This document shows positions 7,208 through 60,170 of a stretch of 64,000 bases of DNA, piece after piece. The stretch spans positions 868,001-932,000 of the forward strand of contig NZ_CP042818.1 of the NCBI RefSeq assembly GCF_008153345.1, read 5' to 3'. Position numbers and translations under genes: made by a program. This DNA comes from Treponema phagedenis (lineage in GTDB: Bacteria > Spirochaetota > Spirochaetia > Treponematales > Treponemataceae). The stretch's first letter is position 1. Each line of letters starts with the position of its first letter. The notes beneath the pieces were generated by a model. That model was given only the letters and a program-made list of their open reading frames with translations. It did not search any database and was not told the origin of the DNA.

Positions 7208-7409
7208 TACTATTACAACGTTTTGTAATTAAGCTGCCGTTATACTAATCGGGGCATTAATAATAACGGCTTGCAGATTCAGCATTACTATGGTAAATTG
7301 CGCAAGGGCGAAGTTACAGTAAATTTCTAAAACTTCGCCCTTGTGCTGAGTTTTTTTTCATAAAATTTTTATAGTTCGTATAAAATATATTAAAAAACGC
7401 TACACTATG
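7208..7409 (-). repeat. Dispersed MITE-like repeat, copy 1
   Basis: A member of a structured intergenic repeat family, in reverse orientation. Ends resemble inverted repeats: ACAACGTTTTGTAATTAAG near 7214 and TATTAAAAAACGCTACAC near 7388. It holds the shared block AGCATTACTATGGTAAATTGC (about 7280). The centre is a hairpin with arms GCGCAAGGGCGAAGTT and AACTTCGCCCTTGTGC. It fills most of the 392-base gap between the dCMP deaminase gene and the 445-residue protein gene; no gene was seen there. Confidence 0.7.
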
Positions 7410-17849: not shown

Positions 17850-18360
17850 TGTGCCGAGCACCTCCCTTGTATAAAATTCAAATGTAAAAGGTACAGTGTG
17901 GCATTTACAGGTTTGTGTCAATACTTTTAAAATAATTTCTCAAAAAACTTTTACCATAGAATGCCCGCAATATCAAAATAAATAAAACGAGCCCGACACG
18001 GCACAAGGGCGAAACCTTGGAATTTCCACCATTGTTTCGCCTACGAGTTTTGCCTGTTTACTTAGCCGCTCAGGCAAAACATCGTTTGGAATTTGGCAAC
18101 GGTGAGCGGTTTACCACAGGCTTGAAAGTTTTTTTCACTAAGATATTGCAAAAAAGACACGTTCAAAGTCTATTCTCAAGAAAAAACAGAGCTGACGAGC
18201 ATGCACTATTAATTTAGAGATATATGCAATTGCTGTATACACAATGGCAGGTTAGCACCGTACCATCCAAAACAGATTAACTAATTATAGAATAGTTACC
18301 GAGCAAACAACTTTAAAATCTCTCTATAAAAAACTATAGTTTTTTAAATAGTCATGGATT
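17850..18360 (-). other. Intergenic region with potA promoter and a repeat copy
   Basis: This 511-base gap lies upstream of potA and downstream of the metallo-hydrolase gene, both on the minus strand. The first 100 bases should hold the potA promoter; 17994-18115 is a repeat-family copy; 18116-18360 is AT-rich and holds nothing I can name. Confidence 0.4.
17994..18115 (+). repeat. Dispersed structured repeat, copy 2 (core only)
   Basis: Core of the repeat family in forward orientation. GGCGAAAC (18008-18015) pairs with GTTTCGCC (18034-18041), and GTTTTGCCTG (18047-18056) pairs with CAGGCAAAAC (18071-18080). These are followed by ATCGTTTGGAATT and GGCAACGGTGAG. The terminal inverted repeats seen in longer copies are missing. 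Confidence 0.7.
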
Positions 18361-32399: not shown

Positions 32400-32635
32400 G
32401 CGGTTTCTAAGTAAGTTGTTGTCTTAATCGGCGCATCAACAAATGGATTGAGGATACAGTATTACTATGGTAAATTGCCCACCCTTACTCAATTCCAAAC
32501 GATGTTTTAAAGCATCAACACAAAACTGTAAAATTGAAGCTTTAAAACTCGTAGGCGAACCAAAGGTAGCAATTCCAAGAGTTCGCCCTTGTGCCGTGTC
32601 GGACTCATTTTAATAAAAAATATATAGCTTGCTCA
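32400..32635 (-). repeat. Dispersed MITE-like repeat, copy 3
   Basis: Reverse-orientation copy filling most of the 323-base gap between cdd and trkA. It has CTTAATCGGCGCATCAACA, then GTATTACTATGGTAAATTGC, and the stem GTTTTAAAGC/GCTTTAAAAC in place of the GTTTTGCCTG/CAGGCAAAAC of other copies. The outer stem GGCGAAC/GTTCGCC and the end block GTGCCGTGTCGGACTC are shared. No gene is seen here. Confidence 0.68.
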
Positions 32636-38904: not shown

Positions 38905-40971
38905 ATGATGAAAAACTCATCAATTGTTAAAAAAGGACCCATGGAGGTATACAAGTCCTTATTGGTTGCCGCACTAACAATTGCAGCATTGGGTATTTTC
39001 GGGGGGCTTACCGCTTGTAAGCAGTCGGCCACTTCGATGGGCACGCCAGAAAACGGCAACGTTACCGTCACAATAACAGGCGAAAACTTAAAAGACATTC
39101 CTACAGGCGGAAAAAACGTTGTGTTTAACGCCGGTACTACTTGGAAAACGGTACAAAAAGACCTCAAATCCAAAATAACTCCCCAAGATAACTACGAAAT
39201 TGAAACGTGGTCGCTTGAAGGTAAAGAAATAGCCGATTCCTATCAGTTTAAGGCAAATGCAACTATTGTTGTCAAAACAAGGCGAAAAGGAACAAGCCCT
39301 GTACCGGCGGGAATTACCGTAACGGTGCAAGGCGATGCGAATGTTACAGGCGTTCCGCTTACACTGCCGGCAACAGATAAAAAGTGGGCGGACATAAAAG
39401 CGGATGCCGAAACTAAAATAAGCTTTAACGAAGGCTATGAGTTTGCTTCTTACCGAGTGAACAAAAAAGACGGGGAGTACATAACCGATGGATATGTTTT
39501 TACAAAAGACACAACCGTTTTTGTCATATCAAAAGCAAAGGGAGCGCAGCCAAATCCTACAGTTACCATACACATAAAAGGAGACAGTAATCTTATCCTT
39601 ATTTCTGATGAAATGGCGGTGAATAAGGGTAAAAGCTGGGCGGACATAAAAGCGGATGCCGAAGCTAAAATAAACTTTAAAGAAGGCTATGAGCTTGCCG
39701 AATGGAAGCTGGGCGATGCAAACGGAAGTAAAATAGAAGACAGTCATGTATTCACCGAAGAGACGAGTGTTTTTGTTTTAGCAAAGAAAAAAGGAACAAC
39801 GCCTGCACCGACACCGTTCAAAAATTTTATAACGACTGAAACGAACGGAGTGCTTACCATTACCGGCTACAACGGAAATCCGCCCGCAATACTGGTAATA
39901 CCCGAAGTAATAAACGGAAAGCAGGTTGTAGGTATTAGCAAGGACGCATTTACGGAAAAAATAAGCATAACAAAGGTGGTATTCCCAAAAAGCCTTAAAA
40001 CAATTGAAGACGCCGAATGGGGATGGATCGGCCTTGTCTGCAAATACAAAGGAACCTTTTCAGGTTGTAAAAACTTAACTGTGCTTGACTTTTCCGCCTG
40101 TGAAAATTTTACCTCCATCGGAAACGGGGCTTTTAATGGCTGCAGCGGTATAACGGCACTTACGCTGCCTGCGTCTATTACCTCCATCGGGCATCAGGCT
40201 TTTTACGGCTGCAGCGGTATAACGGGCTCACTTACGCTGCCTGACTCCCTTACCGCCATCGGGGACTGGGCTTTTTCCGGCTGCAGCGGTATAACGGCAC
40301 TTACGCTGCCTGACTCCCTTACCGCCATCGGGGACTGGGCTTTTTCCAACTGCAGCGGTATAACGGGCTCACTTACGCTGCCTGACTCCCTTACCGCCAT
40401 CGGGAGCTCTGCTTTTTTCGGCTGCATCGGTATAACCTCACTTGCGCTACCTGCATCTCTTATCTCCATCGGAAGCTCTGCTTTTTTCAGCTGCATCGGT
40501 ATAACCTCACTTGCACTACCTGACTCCCTTACCGCCATCGGACACTCTGCTTTTTCTGGCTGCCGCGGTATAACGGGCTCACTTACGCTGCCTGACTCCC
40601 TTACCGCCATCGGGAGCTCTGCTTTTTTCGGCTGCATCGGTATAACCTCACTTGCGCTACCTGCATCTCTTATCTCCATCGGAAGCTCTGCTTTTTTCAG
40701 CTGCATCGGTATAACCTCACTTGCACTACCTGACTCCCTTACCGCCATCGGACACTCTGCTTTTTCCGGCTGCACGCAGGCGGTTATTACGCTGCCTCAA
40801 AGCATAACAACGATAGACGTGAAAGCTTTCGGAGATAGGGATAATACAACGTCACTTTGTAAAGCAGTGCGAGTGCCGAACAGCACCATCAAACAGATGG
40901 TAGAAGATTCACAGTATACGAAGAATACTGACAAGAATAACCCACCGTATATTGAGGTGTATACCCCTTAA
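38905..40971 (+). CDS. BspA-type leucine-rich-repeat surface lipoprotein
   Basis: Lipoprotein of 688 residues. The signal peptide ends in the lipobox GLTAC (Cys38). Residues about 51-300 are three related units of 75-80 residues (each with WKTVQKDLKSKI- or WADIKADAEAKI-like helices and a YELAEWKL strand). Residues about 300-640 are LRR_5 units of 23-24 residues with the pattern LTLPDSLTAIGSSAFFGC. Such treponemal and Bacteroidetes proteins bind fibronectin, fibrinogen or epithelial cells. A 210-bp tandem duplication lies inside the LRRs. Start at the first of two ATGs after AAGGAG. Confidence 0.9.
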   Translation: MMKNSSIVKKGPMEVYKSLLVAALTIAALGIFGGLTACKQSATSMGTPENGNVTVTITGENLKDIPTGGKNVVFNAGTTWKTVQKDLKSKITPQDNYEIETWSLEGKEIADSYQFKANATIVVKTRRKGTSPVPAGITVTVQGDANVTGVPLTLPATDKKWADIKADAETKISFNEGYEFASYRVNKKDGEYITDGYVFTKDTTVFVISKAKGAQPNPTVTIHIKGDSNLILISDEMAVNKGKSWADIKADAEAKINFKEGYELAEWKLGDANGSKIEDSHVFTEETSVFVLAKKKGTTPAPTPFKNFITTETNGVLTITGYNGNPPAILVIPEVINGKQVVGISKDAFTEKISITKVVFPKSLKTIEDAEWGWIGLVCKYKGTFSGCKNLTVLDFSACENFTSIGNGAFNGCSGITALTLPASITSIGHQAFYGCSGITGSLTLPDSLTAIGDWAFSGCSGITALTLPDSLTAIGDWAFSNCSGITGSLTLPDSLTAIGSSAFFGCIGITSLALPASLISIGSSAFFSCIGITSLALPDSLTAIGHSAFSGCRGITGSLTLPDSLTAIGSSAFFGCIGITSLALPASLISIGSSAFFSCIGITSLALPDSLTAIGHSAFSGCTQAVITLPQSITTIDVKAFGDRDNTTSLCKAVRVPNSTIKQMVEDSQYTKNTDKNNPPYIEVYTP
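40355..40774 (+). repeat. 210-bp in-frame tandem duplication in the LRR gene
   Basis: Copies 40355-40564 and 40565-40774 are in tandem. Over the 180 bases compared from 40381 and 40591 only one base differs (T versus C at 40557/40767). Each copy encodes 70 residues, three LRR units, so the frame is kept. Confidence 0.88.
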
Positions 40972-41204: not shown

Positions 41205-41590
41205 AAGGCAGGTTAAGGGCTGCCCCAAGCCCTTTGTATAAGCATTCCTATGGTAAGTTACTCACCGTTGTCAAAATCAGAACTGCCACGGATGGCAGTG
41301 GTTCCACGCAGCAGCGAGTTTTAAAGCAAAATTATTTACAAAGCTTTAAAACTCGCAGGTTTGGTTTTGCCATGGACGGCAAAACTCAGAACCGCCACGG
41401 ACGGCGGTGGTTCCAAGCAGAAGCGAGTTTGAAAACTACCACAGCATATTCGGAGTTTTCAAACTCGTGGTTTAGTTTTTGCCATGGACGGCAAAAACTA
41501 AACCTGGGCTCTTTTTTATAAAATTTTTTGTGATTTGTATACGATGCATGAAAAACGTATCAAGTTATTAAAAAACGCTATATTAGTTTT
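41205..41590 (-). repeat. Dispersed repeat, copy 4, expanded with hairpins
   Basis: Largest copy, reverse orientation, in the 652-base gap between two converging genes. The end GTTATTAAAAAACGCTATAT is at about 41564-41583 and the conserved CCTATGGTAAGTTACTCACCGTTG at about 41248. Between them are stems GAGTTTTAAAGC/GCTTTAAAACTC and GAGTTTGAAAAC/GTTTTCAAACTC and four ANGGAN hairpins. It begins with the 30-bp hairpin repeat also found at 35864. Bases 40972-41204 hold no gene that I can support. Confidence 0.65.
41280..41504 (+). ncRNA. Candidate RNA with four ANGGAN hexaloop hairpins (CsrA-site-like)
   Basis: Four hairpins present a hexaloop with central GGA closed by C-G: CACGGATG (41287-41294), CATGGACG (41371-41378), CACGGACG (41396-41403) and CATGGACG (41484-41491). 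Stems differ completely (6 to 14 bp, the last a perfect 14 bp GTTTAGTTTTTGCC/GGCAAAAACTAAAC), and a T-rich run follows. CsrA/RsmA proteins bind CANGGANG in exactly such loops. Transcription from the plus strand is assumed, either as an sRNA or as the 3' end of the LRR mRNA. Not proven. Confidence 0.4.
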
Positions 41591-45251: not shown

Positions 45252-45535
45252 ACTATAGAGTTTTTTTGATAACTCGTTCTCTTTTTAATACATTTATACG
45301 AATTGTAAAAAGTTTTATAAAAAAGAGTCCGACACAGCGCAAGGGCGAACCCTTGGAATTTCTACCTTTGGTTCGCCTACGAGTTTTGCCTGCTTACGCA
45401 GGAGTATCAGGCAAAACATCGTTTGGAATTGAGCAACGGTGAGTAATTTACCATAGTAATGCTGAATCTGCAAACCGTTATGGTTAATGCTCCAAATAGT
45501 ATAACAGCAACTTAATTACAAAACGTTATACTACT
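45252..45535 (+). repeat. Dispersed MITE-like repeat, copy 5 (most complete)
   Basis: Reference copy of 284 bp, forward orientation, in the 396-base gap before the cupin gene. The ends ACTATAGAGTTTTTTTGATA and TTAATTACAAAACGTTATAC form imperfect inverted repeats. Core stems are GGCGAACC (45344-45351) with GGTTCGCC (45370-45377), and GTTTTGCCTG with CAGGCAAAAC. The conserved CAACGGTGAGTAATTTACC and ATAGTAATGCTGAATC follow. The cupin promoter must lie in its last part or in 45536-45631. Confidence 0.75.
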
Positions 45536-45925: not shown

Positions 45926-46004
45926 ATTTACAGTTTAAGGCAAAGACAATTATCTAAAAATGTTTTTGCCGCTTTATACACTCATCGGTGTAACGTTCTA
46001 AGAA

Positions 46005-46125
46005 AAAACGCCCGACACGGCACAAGGGCGGAACCTTGAATTTTTTACCTTTGGTTCGCCCACGAGTTTTGCCTGTTTTCGCTGGAGTATCAGGCAAAAC
46101 ATCGTTTGGAATTGAGCAGCCTCGG
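46005..46125 (+). repeat. Dispersed structured repeat, copy 6 (core only)
   Basis: Forward core copy without terminal repeats, between the cupin gene and the chemoreceptor stop. It has CCCGACACGGCACAAGGGCGG, the stem GTTTTGCCTG/CAGGCAAAAC with loop TTTTCGCTGGAGTAT, and ATCGTTTGGAATTGAGCA. Confidence 0.68.
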
Positions 46126-48394: not shown

Positions 48395-48590
48395 TTTATC
48401 CTAATCGGAACATCAACAGGAGGCGTATAGCTTCAGCATCACTATGGTAAACTTACCCACCGTTGCCAAATTCCAAACGATGTTTTGCCTGAGCGTTTAA
48501 GTAAACAGGCAAAACTCGTAGGCGAAACAATGGTGGAAATTCCAAGGTTTCACCGTTGCGCCGTGTCGGACTCTTTTTATAAATAGAAGC
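48395..48590 (-). repeat. Dispersed repeat, copy 7
   Basis: Reverse-orientation copy in the 442-base gap between the divergent chemoreceptor and mfd genes. It has CCTAATCGGAACATCAACAGG, CATCACTATGGTAAACTTACC, GTTTTGCCTG/CAGGCAAAAC around the loop AGCGTTTAAGTAAA, and GCGCCGTGTCGGACTCTTTTT. The ANGGAN hairpin module follows directly. Confidence 0.68.
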
Positions 48591-51700: not shown

Positions 51701-52216
51701 GTAGGGTTTGACCTCTATCTGCGCCTGTTGGAAGAAGCGATTGAGCGGCTGCAAAATGCCGACTATGAGCCGCCGCAGGAAGTTCTTGTTGAACTTGATT
51801 ACACGGGCTTTATTCCCGACAGTTATATTTCCGTGCCGGAAACAAAAATGGAAATCTATAAAAAAATTGCGGCGGTGCATACCTCAGAAGGACTTGACCG
51901 CATGTACGCTGAAATTATCGATCGCTTCGGACAGCCGCCCGAAGAAGTGGAAAGCCTGCTCGCCCTCGCCGAAATTAAAATAACCTGCAACAAGCTGGCA
52001 ATCTCCTCGCTGAAAGAGCGCGGCGGCAGGGTCAACATTGAATTTATGCGCGTTTCTCGCATCTCCATTGACAAACTCTTGCGCATGATAAAACAATCCG
52101 CTGGAAGAGTCCGCCTTGACAGCGCAAAACCGAATGTCCTCATCCTCGAAACCGGCACCATCGGCTTAAAAGAAAAAAGCGAATTCATCAGCGAAAAACT
52201 GGGGCAACTGGTGTAA
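48740..52216 (+). CDS. mfd: Transcription-repair coupling factor
   Basis: DNA translocase of 1158 residues that removes stalled RNA polymerase and recruits UvrA. Domains in order: UvrB-like N-terminus, RNA-polymerase-interacting CarD-like domain (LNPGDYVVHVNYGIGLFKG), translocase with Walker A GDVGYGKTEVAMRAAFKA near residue 645, DEEQ box IDEEQRFGV, motif VI QLRGRVGRSDKKAYAY, and the C-terminal TRCF domain. The GTG at 48740 has no ribosome site; ATG at 48770 (MQALTNLQTK), with GGGGA upstream, may be the real start. Confidence 0.95.
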   Translation: MSEQGNRLIRMQALTNLQTKIHSWKAMQTARAQFEAQTFPYTVRGSSGGLDAFVLFEYVKTFRDSIILVVPTEKEIETVRADLDVSGLTAEVLPWWGSIAYRPIPNAAPVFAERAQVLSELASLSKESKKIFIIPQRSFLTPVPPKEYIKTLCKHVSVGMAIDTVSISEQLIRWGYTRVPRVSLRGEFALRGEVLDVCTGANTGSAQIAYRIVFDFDTIEKIKSFDLSSQATLDDFSSLMLYPMKEVLWDDERIDCLEENLAALPEFSEDALKIIEELRIKRGFEGEEIFYPLCFQKPASVLDYIDSDSVSVFYLDFDRQKNAAEVLEREYIGLYKKARQALDESQRRKTLLTEYPEPHRILLNFTAVHSAYRRSLYFRTIAQAEPEETTVSFNSEPPRSFFGNIVYLKEELEHLLKDGWKIWVFAESENQALRLSEILKDFAVDILPFNLSAGFGISELKLLVIQENEIFGRRRRIPKSVKQVKSSVIDTFIELNPGDYVVHVNYGIGLFKGIERVRSGGTERDYINLLYANEETVFIPIEQANLVQRYIGNEGEAPRLDILGSKSWENRKNKVKKSVEDIANKLIDLYSRRKAARGHAFQPDDEWQLAFEAAFPYEETDDQLTCVAEVKADMEKPVPMDRLVCGDVGYGKTEVAMRAAFKAIMGGKQVAFLSPTTILAEQHFETLDERFKNFPVTVARMSRFITRSEQKKILEQLKNGDIDILVGTHRIIQKDVVFKDLGLMIIDEEQRFGVKDKERLKQMKTNVDCLALSATPIPRTLHMSLLKIRDMSLLTTPPQNRRPIETVIQEFDPEKVAAAIRQEVERGGQVFYLHNRVETLDETARMLQNLVPEVLIDSAHGQMNSDELEDIFKRFNMGGFHVLIATTIIENGIDIPNANTIIIDRADMYGVSQLYQLRGRVGRSDKKAYAYLLYPKDRALSEIAMKRLQVISDFTELGSGFKIAMKDMEIRGAGNLLGREQSGDIYSVGFDLYLRLLEEAIERLQNADYEPPQEVLVELDYTGFIPDSYISVPETKMEIYKKIAAVHTSEGLDRMYAEIIDRFGQPPEEVESLLALAEIKITCNKLAISSLKERGGRVNIEFMRVSRISIDKLLRMIKQSAGRVRLDSAKPNVLILETGTIGLKEKSEFISEKLGQLV

Positions 52217-52219
52217 CCA

Positions 52220-52303
52220 CCTGACATAATTTGATTTTCGCCTGACATAATTTGATTTTCGCCTGACATAATTTGATTTTCGCCTGACATAATTTGATTT
52301 TCG
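52220..52303. repeat. Four perfect 21-bp tandem repeats
   Basis: Unit CCTGACATAATTTGATTTTCG occurs four times without mismatch, beginning 4 nt after the mfd stop and ending 58 nt before the stop of the converging kinase-like gene. It is a variable-number tandem-repeat candidate outside coding sequence. Confidence 0.9.
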
Positions 52304-54666: not shown

Positions 54667-55614
54667 TTACCGCGTTTTCAGATTTAACAAATCTTTCAGA
54701 ACGGAAAAAGCGGTCGGTCTGCCTCCGGCGCCGAGTCCTTTGAAGGTGAGGGTGCCCGCATTGCTGCAATGGATGATAACCGCATTTTCTCCGTTTACCA
54801 GACTTCCGAGCACGGTGCCGGCGGGAACGGGCACCGGTTTTACCGATGCCCGAATGTCTTCCGGCGTTTTATGCGCTTCGGCGATAAGTTTGAGTTTAAG
54901 CCCTTCCGCTTTACGCGTGAGGACTTCTTCGCTGCCGACAGCTCGGATGCCCTCTACCGCAATATCTTGTTCGCGCACCGGAATACCGAAAGCAAGGCTT
55001 GCAAGGATTCGCAGTTTTCGCATAGTATCGAGTCCGTCAATGTCGGCTGAAGGGTCGGCTTCGGCAAAGCCTTGCGCCTGCGCTTTTTCTAAAGCCTCGG
55101 CAAAGCTTAACTTGTTTTCCATTGCGGTGAGAATATAGTTGCAGGTTCCGTTCAGCACTGCTTGAATGCCGGTGATTTCGTTTAAGCATTTGATGTCGGC
55201 TATTTTCTCGATAACGGGAATTGCCCCGCCGACGCTTGCCTCGTATTTGAGCTCTACGCGGTGTTCGTCTGCAAGCCGATGCAGCTCTTCCATATGCGCG
55301 GAAACAAGCGCCTTGTTTGCGGTGATAATGTCTTTTCCGTTTATCATTGCTTGCTTAATTGCGGGGAAAATTGCACCGCCGGTAACTTCGATAACCGTGT
55401 TAATTTCAGGGTCTTCGATAACTTCGTTTATATCCTGTGTAAAAAGATTGAGCTGCGAATTTTCCCTTCGGTGTTTTTCGATATCGCGTACCAGTATTTT
55501 TTTTACTGCCGCCGGAGAGCCGAGTGCTTTTTCAACACTTGTTTTTTGCTCATTAAAAATATCATACACGCTTTTCCCAACGGTTCCAAATCCAAGTATG
55601 CCGATTGTTCTCAT
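54667..55614 (-). CDS. hom: Homoserine dehydrogenase
   Basis: NAD(P)-dependent reduction of aspartate semialdehyde to homoserine. The 315 residues hold the Rossmann motif GFGTVGKSVYDIF, the catalytic domain with NGTCNYILTAM and EADPSADIDGLDT, and a C-terminal strand KGLGAGGRPTAFSV. There is no C-terminal ACT domain, so allosteric threonine control is not expected. Its start overlaps asd by 4 nt (55611-55614), giving an asd-hom pair. Confidence 0.94.
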   Translation of the reverse strand: MRTIGILGFGTVGKSVYDIFNEQKTSVEKALGSPAAVKKILVRDIEKHRRENSQLNLFTQDINEVIEDPEINTVIEVTGGAIFPAIKQAMINGKDIITANKALVSAHMEELHRLADEHRVELKYEASVGGAIPVIEKIADIKCLNEITGIQAVLNGTCNYILTAMENKLSFAEALEKAQAQGFAEADPSADIDGLDTMRKLRILASLAFGIPVREQDIAVEGIRAVGSEEVLTRKAEGLKLKLIAEAHKTPEDIRASVKPVPVPAGTVLGSLVNGENAVIIHCSNAGTLTFKGLGAGGRPTAFSVLKDLLNLKTR

Positions 55615-56585
55615 AGCCCTGCCTTATTCAGATACTCGCCGATTTGTACAGCGTTTAAGGCGGCTCCCTTTCGGATATTATCCGCGACTGTCCAAAGGTT
55701 TAAGCCGAACTCAAGACTTTCGTCCCGCCTGATTCTGCCGACATATATGGCATCGTTTCCTTCTGCCATGGAAGAAACCGGATACCTGTTTTGCATCGGG
55801 TTATCAACCAAAATCATACCGAGTTTATTATCCATCAAAGATTTTACTTCCGCAATATCAAAGTCCTTGGTTGTTTCGACGTTGACGGACACACTGTGAG
55901 AAAACCGAATCGGCACGCGCACGGTTGTTGCCGTTATTTTCAACGAATCTTGATGAAGTATTTTTTTTGTTTCCATAATCATTTTGATTTCTTCTTTGGT
56001 GTAGCCGTTTTCCAAAAATGAGTCTATGTGCGGAATGATGTTTTTTGTAATAGGGTAGGGGTAGAACTCTTGAATATTTTCATCAAGGTCACGCAGTCCC
56101 TTCATGCCCGAGCCGGAAACGGATTGATAGGTTGAGTATACAATTCGTTTTAATCCGTAGTGCTGTTGAATTTGAAAAAGCGGCGCCATACATTGTATGG
56201 TTGAGCAATTAGGATTGGCAATAATGTAATTGTCTTTGGTAATTGCTTGCGGATTAACTTCGGGGACAACCAGCGGCACGTTCTTATCCATTCTGAAACA
56301 GCTGCTATTATCAATAACGCGTAAGCCCTTGTTTGCGGCAATCGGCACAAACCGGCGGCTTAAATCGGATGAGACGGCAAAGAACGCAATATCAAATCCG
56401 TCAAAAGCGTTTTCGTCCAAAACTTCGATGCGGTGTTTTTTACCTCGAAAGGTAATTTCTTTGCCGGCTGATTTTTCCGACGCTAAGAAACGTATGTCCG
56501 CAATCGGGAAGTTCCGCTCTTCCAAAATGCTACAAATGGTTGAGCCAACCAATCCGGTGGCTCCCGCAATAATTATTTTTTTCAT
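55611..56585 (-). CDS. asd: Aspartate-semialdehyde dehydrogenase
   Basis: NADPH-dependent reduction of aspartyl phosphate. The 324 residues show GATGLVGSTICSILEER at the N-terminus, the active-site Cys in NPNCSTIQCMAPLF, and the substrate/catalytic region RVPIRFSHSVSVNVET (the usual His is in this segment). It serves both homoserine and, in principle, lysine/diaminopimelate routes. It is read just after the metA-kinase fusion gene with a repeat copy between them, and overlaps hom. Confidence 0.95.
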   Translation of the reverse strand: MKKIIIAGATGLVGSTICSILEERNFPIADIRFLASEKSAGKEITFRGKKHRIEVLDENAFDGFDIAFFAVSSDLSRRFVPIAANKGLRVIDNSSCFRMDKNVPLVVPEVNPQAITKDNYIIANPNCSTIQCMAPLFQIQQHYGLKRIVYSTYQSVSGSGMKGLRDLDENIQEFYPYPITKNIIPHIDSFLENGYTKEEIKMIMETKKILHQDSLKITATTVRVPIRFSHSVSVNVETTKDFDIAEVKSLMDNKLGMILVDNPMQNRYPVSSMAEGNDAIYVGRIRRDESLEFGLNLWTVADNIRKGAALNAVQIGEYLNKAGL

Positions 56586-56621: not shown

Positions 56622-56813
56622 GTATAGTGTTTTTTTTAATAACTCGAACCGTTTTTTTAATACATCTTACAAAAACCATAAAAAGTTTTATAAAAAGATT
56701 TCGACACGGCGCAACGGTGAGCAATTTACCATAGTAATGCGTAAATCCGCAGTCCCTTATTGTTGATACCCCGATTTGTATAACAGGAAGTTAATTACAA
56801 AACGCTCCACTAG
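56622..56813 (+). repeat. Dispersed MITE-like repeat, copy 8, overlapping the stop of the metA-kinase fusion
   Basis: Short complete copy: ends TGTATAGTGTTTTTTTTAATA and TTAATTACAAAACGCTCCACTA, core reduced to CGACACGGCGCAACGGTGAG plus CAATTTACCATAGTAATGCG (the two inner stems are missing). The fusion gene's TAG (56810-56812) lies inside the terminal repeat. It occupies the space between the fusion gene and asd. Confidence 0.72.
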
Positions 56814-58609
56814 TTATCCCGAATTTCCGTACCTTCGGAATCGGGTGCATTTGTGTTAAGTATTTTCAGCGTAATGTTTTTTTCTTTTACCGGCTCAATT
56901 GCTTCCCGTTGGTAAATCTGTGCACCGCCTTCAATAATCTGCGTGAGCTCGGTGTAGTTAAGGTGCGGTATTTTTTCCACATTGGGATTTTTCATCGGGT
57001 CGCCGGTCATCACACCGTCTACATCGGTCCAGTTTTCATATACGGCGGAGTTTAATGCGCGCGCTAAAATTGAGCCGGTATAATCGGAGCCGCCCCGTTC
57101 AAAAATTCTGATAGCCCCCGATTCATCGCTGCCGTAAAAACCGGGTATAACAACTTTTTGCCCCTTCTCGATTTTTTGCCGTATGTTACGATAACTTTTT
57201 TCAAGGTCTACCGTTCCCTTTCGGTCAAAGCTGATAAGGTCTTTTGCATCAATAAATTGATAATCCAAATAAGCTGCCATTATTTTTGCATTTAAGTATT
57301 CACCGCGGCTTAACACAAAGTCTTTTGATGTTGATTTTTCAATTTCAGAGAATACGGAATCTATTTCCTGCTCAAAATGAGAATCCAAATCTAAATCGTT
57401 GACAATTTCCAAAAAGCGATTTTTGCTCATGGTGAGTTTAATTTGCAACTCATCTTTTTTTGTGCTTAAATCCTCTTGCAGCCTTTGTATAACATCGGCA
57501 AGCGTGCGTACTTCTTCTTTTAACCGATGTATTTCTATTAAACGATCGGTTATCTTTGTGTCGGAGGGATGCCGTTTCCCCGGAGCTGAAACCACCACAA
57601 TATCGCGGTCTTCTTTTGCAAGGATAATTTCTTTTACCTTGGCAAACTGTTTTGCATCACTAAGCGATGAGCCGCCGAATTTTGACACACTCTTTTTTTG
57701 AATTTCGTTTAAGTCGTAGGGCGTTTCCTGATACACGCAGTAGTTAAGCCAGTTTGAAAAAAAGAGATTACCTGCGGTGCGCCAACGGACTCTGATTGAA
57801 TTGCCGGGATCGTCTTTATGATAATAGTTTTTCGGAATATCAATCGGGGCTTTTTTATACAGGTCACGAAGATATTCTTTGTGCAAGGTTTCCGCATCAT
57901 ATTCCCAGTGCCCGAATGAGAAGATAAACCGCTGGTCGGTGGTAGCCGCCAAACTGACACCGGTATCCGTTCTATGTGCTAAAACCTGCACATCGGGATG
58001 GGCGGCAAAACTTTCCGGATTGACATAACTGTATCGAGACTGCGGCATAAAAAATTCATCGTCAAAGCCTCGTAATAAATTATGCTCTTGCAGTTTTTCG
58101 TACCTGAATACTCCGAATATTTTTTTTTCGATGACGGTGCTCGGTATATTGTAGTAATAGTACAAAGCGGCTTGCGCAGACCAACAAATAAACATGGTGG
58201 AAAATACATTTGCTTTTGCAAAATCAAAAATCCGCTTTAACTCCTCCCAGTATTTAATGCTATCGTATTCCAATCGTTCAACCGGCGCACCGGTAATAAT
58301 CATCGCATCGTATTTGTTGTTTTTTATCTCATCATATGTTTTATAAAATTTTTGCAAATGCTCCGCGTCCGCATTTTTTGAGCGGTAACTGTCCATCCGT
58401 ACTAAATCAATTTTAATCTGTAAGGCGGAGTTGGATAACATTCTCAAAAGTTGAATTTCGGTTTCTTCCTTTTTGGGCATGAGGTTTACAATCGCAATTT
58501 GAATTGGACGAATATCCTGCCGCTCAGCCTCTTTTTCACTTTTAAGAAATATTTTTTCTCTTTCTAAAACACTCTTTTCAATGAGATTTTTTGGAATAAT
58601 TAGCGGCAT
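56810..58609 (-). CDS. Homoserine O-acetyltransferase fused to an ACT-less aspartokinase
   Basis: 599-residue fusion. Residues 1-297 are a MetA-type homoserine O-acyltransferase with Lys47 (MPKKEETE), Cys142 (ICWSAQAALY), His234 and Glu236 (FGHWEYD); Glu111 in GAPVE predicts acetyl-CoA rather than succinyl-CoA. Residues about 307-599 are the aspartokinase catalytic domain (VSKFGGSSLSDA, SRGEYLNAKIMAAYL, ERGGSDYTGSILARAL, KILNTNAPDSEGTEI). It ends where ACT domains normally begin. So one protein does the first step of the aspartate pathway and the branch step to methionine. It follows metY by 3 nt. Confidence 0.92.
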   Translation of the reverse strand: MPLIIPKNLIEKSVLEREKIFLKSEKEAERQDIRPIQIAIVNLMPKKEETEIQLLRMLSNSALQIKIDLVRMDSYRSKNADAEHLQKFYKTYDEIKNNKYDAMIITGAPVERLEYDSIKYWEELKRIFDFAKANVFSTMFICWSAQAALYYYYNIPSTVIEKKIFGVFRYEKLQEHNLLRGFDDEFFMPQSRYSYVNPESFAAHPDVQVLAHRTDTGVSLAATTDQRFIFSFGHWEYDAETLHKEYLRDLYKKAPIDIPKNYYHKDDPGNSIRVRWRTAGNLFFSNWLNYCVYQETPYDLNEIQKKSVSKFGGSSLSDAKQFAKVKEIILAKEDRDIVVVSAPGKRHPSDTKITDRLIEIHRLKEEVRTLADVIQRLQEDLSTKKDELQIKLTMSKNRFLEIVNDLDLDSHFEQEIDSVFSEIEKSTSKDFVLSRGEYLNAKIMAAYLDYQFIDAKDLISFDRKGTVDLEKSYRNIRQKIEKGQKVVIPGFYGSDESGAIRIFERGGSDYTGSILARALNSAVYENWTDVDGVMTGDPMKNPNVEKIPHLNYTELTQIIEGGAQIYQREAIEPVKEKNITLKILNTNAPDSEGTEIRDN

Positions 58610-58612
58610 GTA

Positions 58613-59902
58613 TCAGCTCCTACCCACTACGGAAAAAGCTTGGTCTAAGTCTTTGATAATATCGTCTGCGGATTCAATGCCGACTGAAAGTCTGACCATG
58701 TTCGGCAAAATGCCCGCTGCTTTTTGTGCTTCATCGCTTAATTGACGATGCGTCATGCTTGCCGGATGCAAAACATGCGTGCGAAGGTCGCCGACGTGGA
58801 CAACAAGGGATGCAAGCTCCAACCGGTTAATCCATTTTTTTGTTTCTTCAAGCCCGCCTCGAACGCCGAAAGAAATAACACCGCTTGCGCCATTCGGAAG
58901 ATATTTTTGCGCAAGCTGATACTCAGGATTGCTTTTTAACAGCGGATAATGCACCCATTCTACCTTCGGATGCGCTTCTAAAAACTCTGCAATTTTTAAT
59001 GCGTTAGATGAATGCTTTTCCATTCGTAATGCCAATGTTTCCGTCCCGAGATTGGTTAAAAATGCGTTAAACGGGCTCATCGTTGCGCCGAGATCGCGCA
59101 AAAACACCACGCGTGCTTTTACAATAAAAGCGGAATTGCCGAACTGCTCCGTATAGCTTAGCCCGTGGTAATTCGGATCGGGATCGGTTAAGCATGAAAA
59201 TTTCCCATTATTCCACGGGAACTTTCCGCTGTCTACTATTATACCGCCAACGCTTGTCGCGTGTCCGTCCAAATACTTTGTTGACGAATGAGTAATAATG
59301 TCCGCACCGAATTCTATCGGCTTGCATAAACAAGGCGTTGCAAAAGTATTGTCTATAAATAAAGGAATATCATGCTCGTGTGCGATTTTTGCAAGCTTTT
59401 CAATATCGGCAACTTCCACGCCGGGGTTCCCGATTGTTTCGGCAAACACCAGTTTTGTATTCGGTTTGATAGCCTTTTTTACGGCGTCAAAATCATTTAA
59501 AGGAACAAAACTTGCTTCAATACCGAATTTTTTTATCGTAGAGCTGAGGAGCGTATATGTACCGCCGTATAAATTATTCATTGCCACCACGTGCTCCCCG
59601 CAGTTACATATGGTTAAAATAGACAAAAGCGTAGCAGCCTGTCCAGAGGAAGTTGTCAAAGCTGCAACGCCGCCTTCAAGCAGCGCAATTTTTTCCTCCA
59701 AAGCAGTAAGTGTTGGATTTGATATTCGCGAATACATGTGCCCGTCTTTGGACAAATCAAAAAGAGCCGCCACCTCATCAGCGGTATCATACTTGAACGT
59801 TGTGGATTGAAAAATCGGCACAATTCTCGGTTCCCCGTTTTTCGGCGCATAACCGCCCTGCACGCACAAAGTCTCGGTTTTTAATTTTTGTGTTATTGAC
59901 AT
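58613..59902 (-). CDS. metY: O-acetylhomoserine sulfhydrylase
   Basis: PLP enzyme of 429 residues that makes homocysteine from O-acetylhomoserine and sulfide. The Schiff-base lysine is Lys209 in ITHSSTKYLDGHATSVGG, PLP contacts are in SSGQAATLLSI and LFIDNTFATP, and YSRISNPTLTALEEKIALLE is the usual N-terminal stretch. Length of about 430 and the local insertion WNNGKFSCLTDPDPNYHGLS favour MetY over cystathionine gamma-synthase. It has a strong ribosome site (GGGAGG) and is first in the operon with the metA-kinase fusion. I saw no SAM riboswitch upstream. Confidence 0.93.
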   Translation of the reverse strand: MSITQKLKTETLCVQGGYAPKNGEPRIVPIFQSTTFKYDTADEVAALFDLSKDGHMYSRISNPTLTALEEKIALLEGGVAALTTSSGQAATLLSILTICNCGEHVVAMNNLYGGTYTLLSSTIKKFGIEASFVPLNDFDAVKKAIKPNTKLVFAETIGNPGVEVADIEKLAKIAHEHDIPLFIDNTFATPCLCKPIEFGADIITHSSTKYLDGHATSVGGIIVDSGKFPWNNGKFSCLTDPDPNYHGLSYTEQFGNSAFIVKARVVFLRDLGATMSPFNAFLTNLGTETLALRMEKHSSNALKIAEFLEAHPKVEWVHYPLLKSNPEYQLAQKYLPNGASGVISFGVRGGLEETKKWINRLELASLVVHVGDLRTHVLHPASMTHRQLSDEAQKAAGILPNMVRLSVGIESADDIIKDLDQAFSVVGRS

Positions 59903-60084: not shown

Positions 60085-60170
60085 TTTGATAACTCAATGA
60101 GTGCGACACAACGCAACGGTGAGCAATTTACCATACTAATGTGTATTGTACAGGCTTGGGGCAGCCCTTA
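60085..60170 (+). repeat. Dispersed repeat, copy 9, joined to the AAGGGCT hairpin block
   Basis: Fragmentary forward copy: TTTTGATAACTCAATGAGTG, then GCGACACAACGCAACGGTGAG and CAATTTACCATACTAATG. It is followed by an inverted 18-base match (60153-60170) to the hairpin repeat of 35864 and 41205, and lies just after the stop of the methyltransferase-like gene. Confidence 0.6.

What the first reader, a model, noticed from the sequence alone, without database searches (positions are those of the whole stretch)
56810..58609. Fusion of homoserine O-acetyltransferase with aspartokinase
One 599-residue frame joins a complete MetA-type acyltransferase (Lys47, Cys142, His234, Glu236 present) to a complete aspartokinase catalytic domain (KFGGSS, GGSDYTGS). 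The well-known kinase fusion is aspartokinase-homoserine dehydrogenase (ThrA/MetL); a MetA-aspartokinase fusion is not one I know. It couples the first step of the aspartate pathway to the methionine-specific step, suggesting the pathway serves methionine only.
Basis: partly seen in the sequence, partly recalled or inferred. Interest (0 to 1): 0.78.

Follow-up and report, generated by a model that had tools for sequence, protein, structure and literature searches.

The report
Fused first and fourth methionine-pathway enzymes
A spirochaete, apparently by gene transfer from Peptoniphilus-like bacteria, carries one protein that combines the first enzyme of the aspartate pathway with the enzyme that commits its product to methionine; the kinase half lacks the usual brake domains, and the fusion is a real, conserved enzyme family for which I found no published description.

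Summary
One minus-strand gene (58609-56810, 599 aa) joins a complete MetA (PF04204, residues 2-298) to an aspartokinase catalytic domain (PF00696, 306-585). All catalytic-motif residues checked are present. The fusion is not unique: I recovered 33 other distinct full-length ACT-less copies, in Peptoniphilus-type and other Bacillota, typically behind an O-acetylhomoserine sulfhydrylase gene and sometimes followed by asd or hom. Four of those operons have a T-box leader with a methionine (AUG) specifier and one has a SAM riboswitch. None of the other 393 spirochaete genomes sampled in its order has it, and the tree nests the window copy inside the Bacillota fusions: horizontal transfer.

In the window's genome it is the only aspartokinase. 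DapA is absent and no ThrB or ThrC passes its cut-off, so "pathway serves methionine only" is supported there. In the Bacillota it is more often one isoenzyme among several. Unexpectedly, the genome has no recognisable methionine synthase (MetH, MetE and PF02574 searches all empty). O-acetylhomoserine may therefore go straight to methionine with methanethiol. That is inference.

I found no description in the open-access library. Verdict: new variant of a known kind (bifunctional aspartokinase fusions).

The parts
56810..58609 (-). MetA-aspartokinase fusion gene, 599 aa
   Evidence: conserved in 33 other distinct proteins
57716..58609 (-). homoserine O-acetyltransferase (MetA/HTS) domain, residues 1-298; K47, E111, C142, H234, E236, R248 invariant in the family
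   Evidence: nearest solved structures 2ghr, 2vdj, 2h2w
57695..57715 (-). junction, residues 299-305; almost no linker (...TPYDLNEIQKKSVSKFGGSS...)
   Evidence: model confidence dips to 62 at residues 301-310
56813..57694 (-). aspartokinase catalytic domain, residues 306-599, without ACT domains
   Evidence: nearest solved structure 3tvi (C. acetobutylicum aspartokinase)
57395..57553 (-). long helix, residues 353-405; about 18 residues longer than in unfused aspartokinases, possible oligomerisation element
   Evidence: segment median 82 in fused against 64 in unfused kinases; function inferred
58613..59902 (-). O-acetylhomoserine sulfhydrylase (MetY), 429 aa, stop 3 bp upstream of the fusion's start codon
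   Evidence: TIGR01326 607 bits, cut-off 495; gene order conserved in many relatives
55611..56585 (-). aspartate-semialdehyde dehydrogenase (Asd), 324 aa
   Evidence: TIGR01296 387 bits, cut-off 324; asd follows the fusion also in L040, L041, L043, L165
54667..55614 (-). homoserine dehydrogenase (Hom), 315 aa, catalytic domains only, no ACT domain matched
   Evidence: fusion-asd-hom order also in L165, fusion-hom in L164

Best explanation
The gene encodes a bifunctional, methionine-dedicated enzyme. The C-terminal half phosphorylates aspartate (step 1). The N-terminal half acetylates homoserine with acetyl-CoA (step 4, the methionine-committing step). Asd and Hom next door carry out steps 2 and 3, and MetY, just upstream, converts O-acetylhomoserine with a reduced sulphur compound. 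Steps 1 and 4 are not consecutive, so the fusion does not channel an intermediate directly; it ties entry flux to commitment flux in one polypeptide. The kinase has lost the ACT domains by which lysine, threonine or SAM normally inhibit it; in the Bacillota relatives control is instead at the leader RNA (methionine T-box or SAM riboswitch). The spirochaete got the gene, at least together with metY, by horizontal transfer from a Peptoniphilus/Tissierellia-like donor, and no Rfam leader was found in its copy. Shown by sequence: domain content, intact catalytic residues, operon, T-box specifier, distribution, tree. Inferred: both activities, absence of allosteric control, dedication to methionine.
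For: Domains and missing ACT; catalytic residues invariant across 34 diverged fusions (49-66% identity to the window), so both halves are under constraint; neighbouring genes metY, asd, hom and the same order in relatives; T-box leaders directly upstream of metY-fusion in L035, L037, L042, L043 and a SAM riboswitch in L044, with AUG in the specifier position in all four T-boxes; sole aspartokinase of its genome; no DapA, no ThrB over cut-off; found in only 1 of 394 genomes of its own order but in 30 of 249 of the Peptoniphilus order, plus one broken copy; HTS tree nests the window among the Bacillota fusions, AU test rejects grouping with spirochaete MetA (p 1e-8); fused kinases form one clade 100/99; both domains fold confidently, mean pLDDT 87.8.
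Against: No biochemistry exists for any member that I could find. The genome has no recognisable methionine synthase, so the end product is not certain to be methionine. Two ThrC-like proteins below the curated cut-off exist, and only the GHMP-type ThrB was searched, so a threonine branch is not fully excluded. In many Bacillota the fusion coexists with other aspartokinases. A 224-bp gap holding a dispersed repeat separates the fusion from asd, so the four window genes may not be one transcript. No leader RNA is recognisable upstream of the window's metY.
Confidence: 0.8

Rival explanations
1. Same bifunctional enzyme, but MetY uses methanethiol and makes methionine directly from O-acetylhomoserine, so no methionine synthase is needed. 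The pathway depends on methanethiol made by neighbouring bacteria.
For: No MetH, no MetE/core-MetE and no PF02574 homocysteine methyltransferase in a 99.95% complete one-contig genome; 5 of the 10 ACT-less-fusion Bacillota genomes checked with both families also have neither. MetY is reported to use methanethiol in C. glutamicum (PMC4609165) and in the R. rubrum methionine salvage route (PMC4958253).
Against: Substrate choice of this MetY is unknown; several relatives do have MetH, MetE or short MetE-like proteins; an unknown methionine synthase is possible.
Confidence: 0.35
2. The pathway supplies homocysteine or another sulphur metabolite rather than methionine; methionine is imported.
For: No recognisable methionine synthase; T. 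phagedenis, a candidate species for the window, lowers methionine in its medium by 11.9% (PMC11435060).
Against: Methionine T-box and SAM riboswitch control in the relatives points to methionine or SAM as the regulated product, though the window copy has lost the leader.
Confidence: 0.15
3. The kinase half is a relic or a structural or regulatory domain, and only the acetyltransferase works.
For: ACT domains lost; relatives often carry other aspartokinases.
Against: All kinase motifs are invariant in 34 fusions and it is the only aspartokinase of the window's genome, which keeps asd and hom.
Confidence: 0.04
4. Assembly or sequencing artefact joining two adjacent genes.
For: None found.
Against: The same gap-free junction occurs in 33 other distinct proteins from independent assemblies.
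Confidence: 0.01

Closest known systems
Bifunctional aspartokinase-homoserine dehydrogenase (ThrA/MetL)
   Same: One polypeptide carrying aspartokinase and a later enzyme of the same pathway; MetL is the methionine-linked isoenzyme of E. coli.
   Different: Partner is MetA (step 4) at the N-terminus instead of homoserine dehydrogenase at the C-terminus; ACT domains absent.
Bifunctional aspartokinase-diaminopimelate decarboxylase (for example Xylella; PMC555942)
   Same: Fuses the first pathway step to a late, branch-specific enzyme, here the lysine branch.
   Different: Methionine branch, different partner and domain order, ACT domains absent.
MetA homoserine O-acetyltransferase (PF04204; B. 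cereus 2ghr/2vdj, T. maritima 2h2w)
   Same: Complete domain, all catalytic residues, Glu111 of the acetyl-CoA type; structural match TMt 0.91-0.96.
   Different: Carries a C-terminal kinase; below the NCBIfam cut-offs for both MetA_acetyl and MetA_succinyl.
Clostridial aspartokinase (PRK09034 type; C. acetobutylicum 3tvi)
   Same: Closest kinase relative by sequence and fold.
   Different: 3tvi has the ACT part; the fused kinases end before it and have a helix about 18 residues longer.
Eubacterium minutum 824-aa MetA-aspartokinase-ACT fusion (L045)
   Same: Same domain order.
   Different: Keeps the ACT region; its MetA half does not group with the ACT-less fusions (AU p 0.0018), pointing to a separate fusion event; the kinase tree cannot decide (p 0.56).

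Membership tests
MetA / homoserine O-acyltransferase (PF04204) | full-length HTS domain over the gathering score | tested here: met
   404.8 bits, cut-off 27, profile 1-298/298
MetA / homoserine O-acyltransferase (PF04204) | catalytic Cys142, His, Glu, Lys47 | tested here: met
   C142, H234, E236, K47 invariant in 34 fusions
MetA, acetyl-CoA type | Glu111 (acetyl) rather than Gly (from memory of B. cereus MetA work) | tested here: met
   E111 invariant in 34 fusions; activity itself not tested; no paper on the residue was found in the library
NCBIfam MetA_acetyl (NF047918) | score over curated cut-off 460.5 | tested here: not met
   416.7 bits; the E. minutum fusion passes with 482.8
Aspartokinase catalytic domain (PF00696, asp_kinases) | complete AA_kinase fold with KFGGS, RGGSD and WTDV motifs | tested here: met
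   134.9 bits, cut-off 24.9, profile 2-234/234; motifs conserved, core residues invariant
Regulated aspartokinase (ACT-bearing) | C-terminal ACT domain pair | tested here: not met
   protein ends at residue 599, matching only 2-288 of the 454-position PRK09034 profile; no ACT family matched
ThrA/MetL bifunctional enzymes | homoserine dehydrogenase domain in the same chain | tested here: not met
   no Homoserine_dh match in the fusion; hom is a separate gene
Both families | measured aspartokinase and homoserine acetyltransferase activity | not testable with these tools
   needs purified protein

The most novel reading that the evidence does not exclude
A minimal, horizontally transferred methionine module: an ACT-less MetA-aspartokinase fusion with MetY, Asd and Hom that turns aspartate and environmental methanethiol straight into methionine without any methionine synthase, with the MetA dimer and the lengthened kinase helix replacing the ACT domains as the oligomerisation scaffold.
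Probability: 0.25. Interest if true: 0.7.

Novelty: new variant of a known kind. Interest (0 to 1): 0.52.

Why it matters
Aspartokinase is a textbook example of allosteric control by ACT domains. Here is a family in which the domains are gone, the kinase is locked to the methionine-committing enzyme, and control in the relatives appears to have moved to a methionine-sensing leader RNA. It gives a natural, compact, probably feedback-insensitive entry enzyme for methionine and O-acetylhomoserine production, and a directly testable case of how fusion can replace allostery. The transfer into a spirochaete whose sampled genus-mates lack MetA, and the absence of any known methionine synthase, raise the question of where the organism gets the methyl-sulphur of methionine.

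Tried and rejected
Assembly artefact: rejected (conserved junction). Unique to this genome: rejected. Vertical inheritance in spirochaetes: rejected. A second aspartokinase in the genome: none; the other three AA_kinase hits are ProB beside ProA, carbamate kinase beside an ornithine carbamoyltransferase, and a UMP-kinase-sized 228-aa protein, identified by eye from sequence and neighbours rather than by profile. Leader RNA in front of the window's metY: none, even at a permissive threshold. Threonine branch: ThrB hits are IspE and a weaker one not followed up, ThrC-like hits fall below the cut-off; non-GHMP homoserine kinases were not searched. Literature on a MetA-aspartokinase fusion: no description found. 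Relative placement of the two domains in the model is not reliable (pTM 0.54), so no claim is made about an interface.

Full report
CHECK. The frame exists, on the minus strand: 58609..56810, 599 aa, ATG start, no internal stop. Pfam gives HTS 2-298 (404.8 bits, whole profile) and AA_kinase 306-585 (134.9 bits, whole profile). In an alignment of 34 distinct fusion proteins K47, E111, C142, H234, E236, R248 of the acyltransferase and K310, S434-R-G-E437, R505-G-G-S-D509, T511-G-S, W527-T-D-V, D537-P of the kinase are invariant. The junction is almost linker-free, TPYDLNEIQKKSVSKFGGSS, and aligns without gaps in the ACT-less relatives. AlphaFold with 25 aligned sequences gives two well-defined domains (mean pLDDT 87.8) but no reliable relative placement (pTM 0.54); Foldseek matches the halves to MetA (2h2w, 2vdj, 2ghr) and to aspartokinases (3tvi first).

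The kinase is only the catalytic domain. Ordinary aspartokinases of the nearest type (PRK09034, 454 positions; 3tvi, 446 aa) continue with the ACT part; this one stops at profile position 288. The fused kinases also have a segment before the SRGE motif that is about 18 residues longer (median 82 against 64), predicted as one long helix 353-405. Whether it substitutes for the ACT dimer interface is a guess.

SURROUNDINGS. On the same strand, in order: MetY-type O-acetylhomoserine sulfhydrylase 59902-58613 (TIGR01326, 607 bits against cut-off 495), the fusion, Asd 56585-55611 (TIGR01296, 387 against 324), Hom 55614-54667 (Homoserine_dh, 315 aa, no ACT domain matched). That is the complete route aspartate to homocysteine (or methionine). 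metY and the fusion are 3 bp apart; fusion and asd are separated by 224 bp that include a copy of a dispersed repeat.

DISTRIBUTION. The fusion is a family. A scan of one genome per species found it in Tissierellia, Peptoniphilus asaccharolyticus, P. catoniae, P. obesi, Anaerosphaera, Kallipyga, a Natronincola MAG and others at 52-66% identity. Of 249 genomes in the order of P. asaccharolyticus, 30 have a full-length copy and one a broken copy. Gene order metY-fusion is widespread; L040, L041 and L043 add asd; L165 has fusion-asd-hom and L164 fusion-hom. Some relatives have an unfused metY-metA pair with MetA 58-60% identical (L166-L168), a plausible pre-fusion state. Eubacterium minutum has an 824-aa MetA-kinase-ACT protein. 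Its MetA half does not group with the others (AU p 0.0018), suggesting a separate fusion, but the kinase half cannot decide (p 0.56).

REGULATION IN RELATIVES. T-box leaders lie immediately upstream of metY-fusion in L035, L037, L042 and L043 and a SAM riboswitch in L044. In all four T-boxes the specifier position reads AUG (GAAC-AUG-G three times, GAAG-AUG-G once). The operon is therefore a methionine operon in the Bacillota. The window's copy has no recognisable leader.

TRANSFER. Among 394 genomes of the window's order only the window's own has the fusion; its five sampled genus-mates have no MetA at all. In the MetA tree the window copy sits inside the Bacillota fusions (99% SH-aLRT for the 32-row clade; nearest L136, 70% identity); grouping it with spirochaete MetA is rejected (p 1e-8). 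The kinase tree puts the fused kinases in one clade (100/99) with the window inside. The genome is a 3.37-Mb single contig; the window has 40.2% G+C. Its genus includes a 1.1-Mb member, which points to Treponema; T. phagedenis has 39.9-40.2% G+C and 2.9-3.1 Mb in PMC8049484, so a T. phagedenis-like species is possible but unproven.

PATHWAY CONTEXT. The fusion is the only aspartokinase; the other AA_kinase genes look like proB, carbamate kinase and pyrH. DapA gives no match. ThrB gives only IspE and a weaker hit. Two ThrC-like proteins score below the cut-off, and one of them (437 aa) has Arg where the catalytic lysine is expected (SHRDF in place of FKDF; read by eye). But MetH (TIGR02082), MetE (PF01717) and homocysteine methyltransferases (PF02574) all give no match. 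Of 10 Bacillota genomes with the ACT-less fusion tested for both families, five also have neither (G294, G295, G296, G299, G300), two have only a short MetE-like protein, and three have PF02574. MetY is reported to accept methanethiol to make methionine directly (PMC4609165; PMC4958253). Direct methylthiolation is therefore a reasonable but unproven ending of the pathway here.

MECHANISM. Shown: domains, residues, operon, leader RNAs, distribution, tree. Inferred: both activities; no feedback by Lys/Thr because ACT is absent; equimolar supply of entry and commitment enzymes. Steps 1 and 4 do not share an intermediate, so direct substrate channelling between the two halves is not expected.

NOVELTY. 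Fusions of aspartokinase with homoserine dehydrogenase and with diaminopimelate decarboxylase are known (PMC555942). I found no paper in the open-access library that describes a MetA-aspartokinase fusion; subscription papers and domain databases outside the tools could not be checked, and the architecture may well be listed there without comment. New variant of a known kind.

Noticed in passing
window 7209-7304, 17973-18119, 32442-32618, 41214-41270, 45309-45533, 45992-46118, 48450-48580, 56694-56814, 60096-60170: A family of dispersed intergenic repeats (core CATTACTATGGTAAATTGCTCACCGTTGCG) with at least nine places in 64 kb on both strands; two copies flank the metY-fusion pair, and one abuts the fusion's stop codon.
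   Followed up: partly
window 40109-40784: Direct repeat array with about 69-72 nt spacing, probably inside a coding region.
   Followed up: no
window 52199-52303: Tandem 21-nt repeat CCTGACATAATTTGATTTTCG, at least four units.
   Followed up: no
L178:223-1704 and L179:350-1663 (own genome C1 about 3.21 Mb and 1.72 Mb): Two threonine-synthase-like proteins below the TIGR00260 cut-off in a genome with no ThrB over cut-off; the second has Arg in place of the expected catalytic lysine, so they may have other roles.
   Followed up: partly
own genome (whole): No recognisable methionine synthase of any tested family in a 99.95% complete genome that keeps a full route to O-acetylhomoserine.
   Followed up: partly
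L171 (G366:C2 about 534-536 kb): The fusion gene is broken into two frames within the kinase part in one Bacillota genome, which carries a full-length MetE.
   Followed up: no
L166, L167, L168: Unfused metY-metA pairs whose MetA is 58-60% identical to the window's: likely the pre-fusion arrangement.
   Followed up: partly
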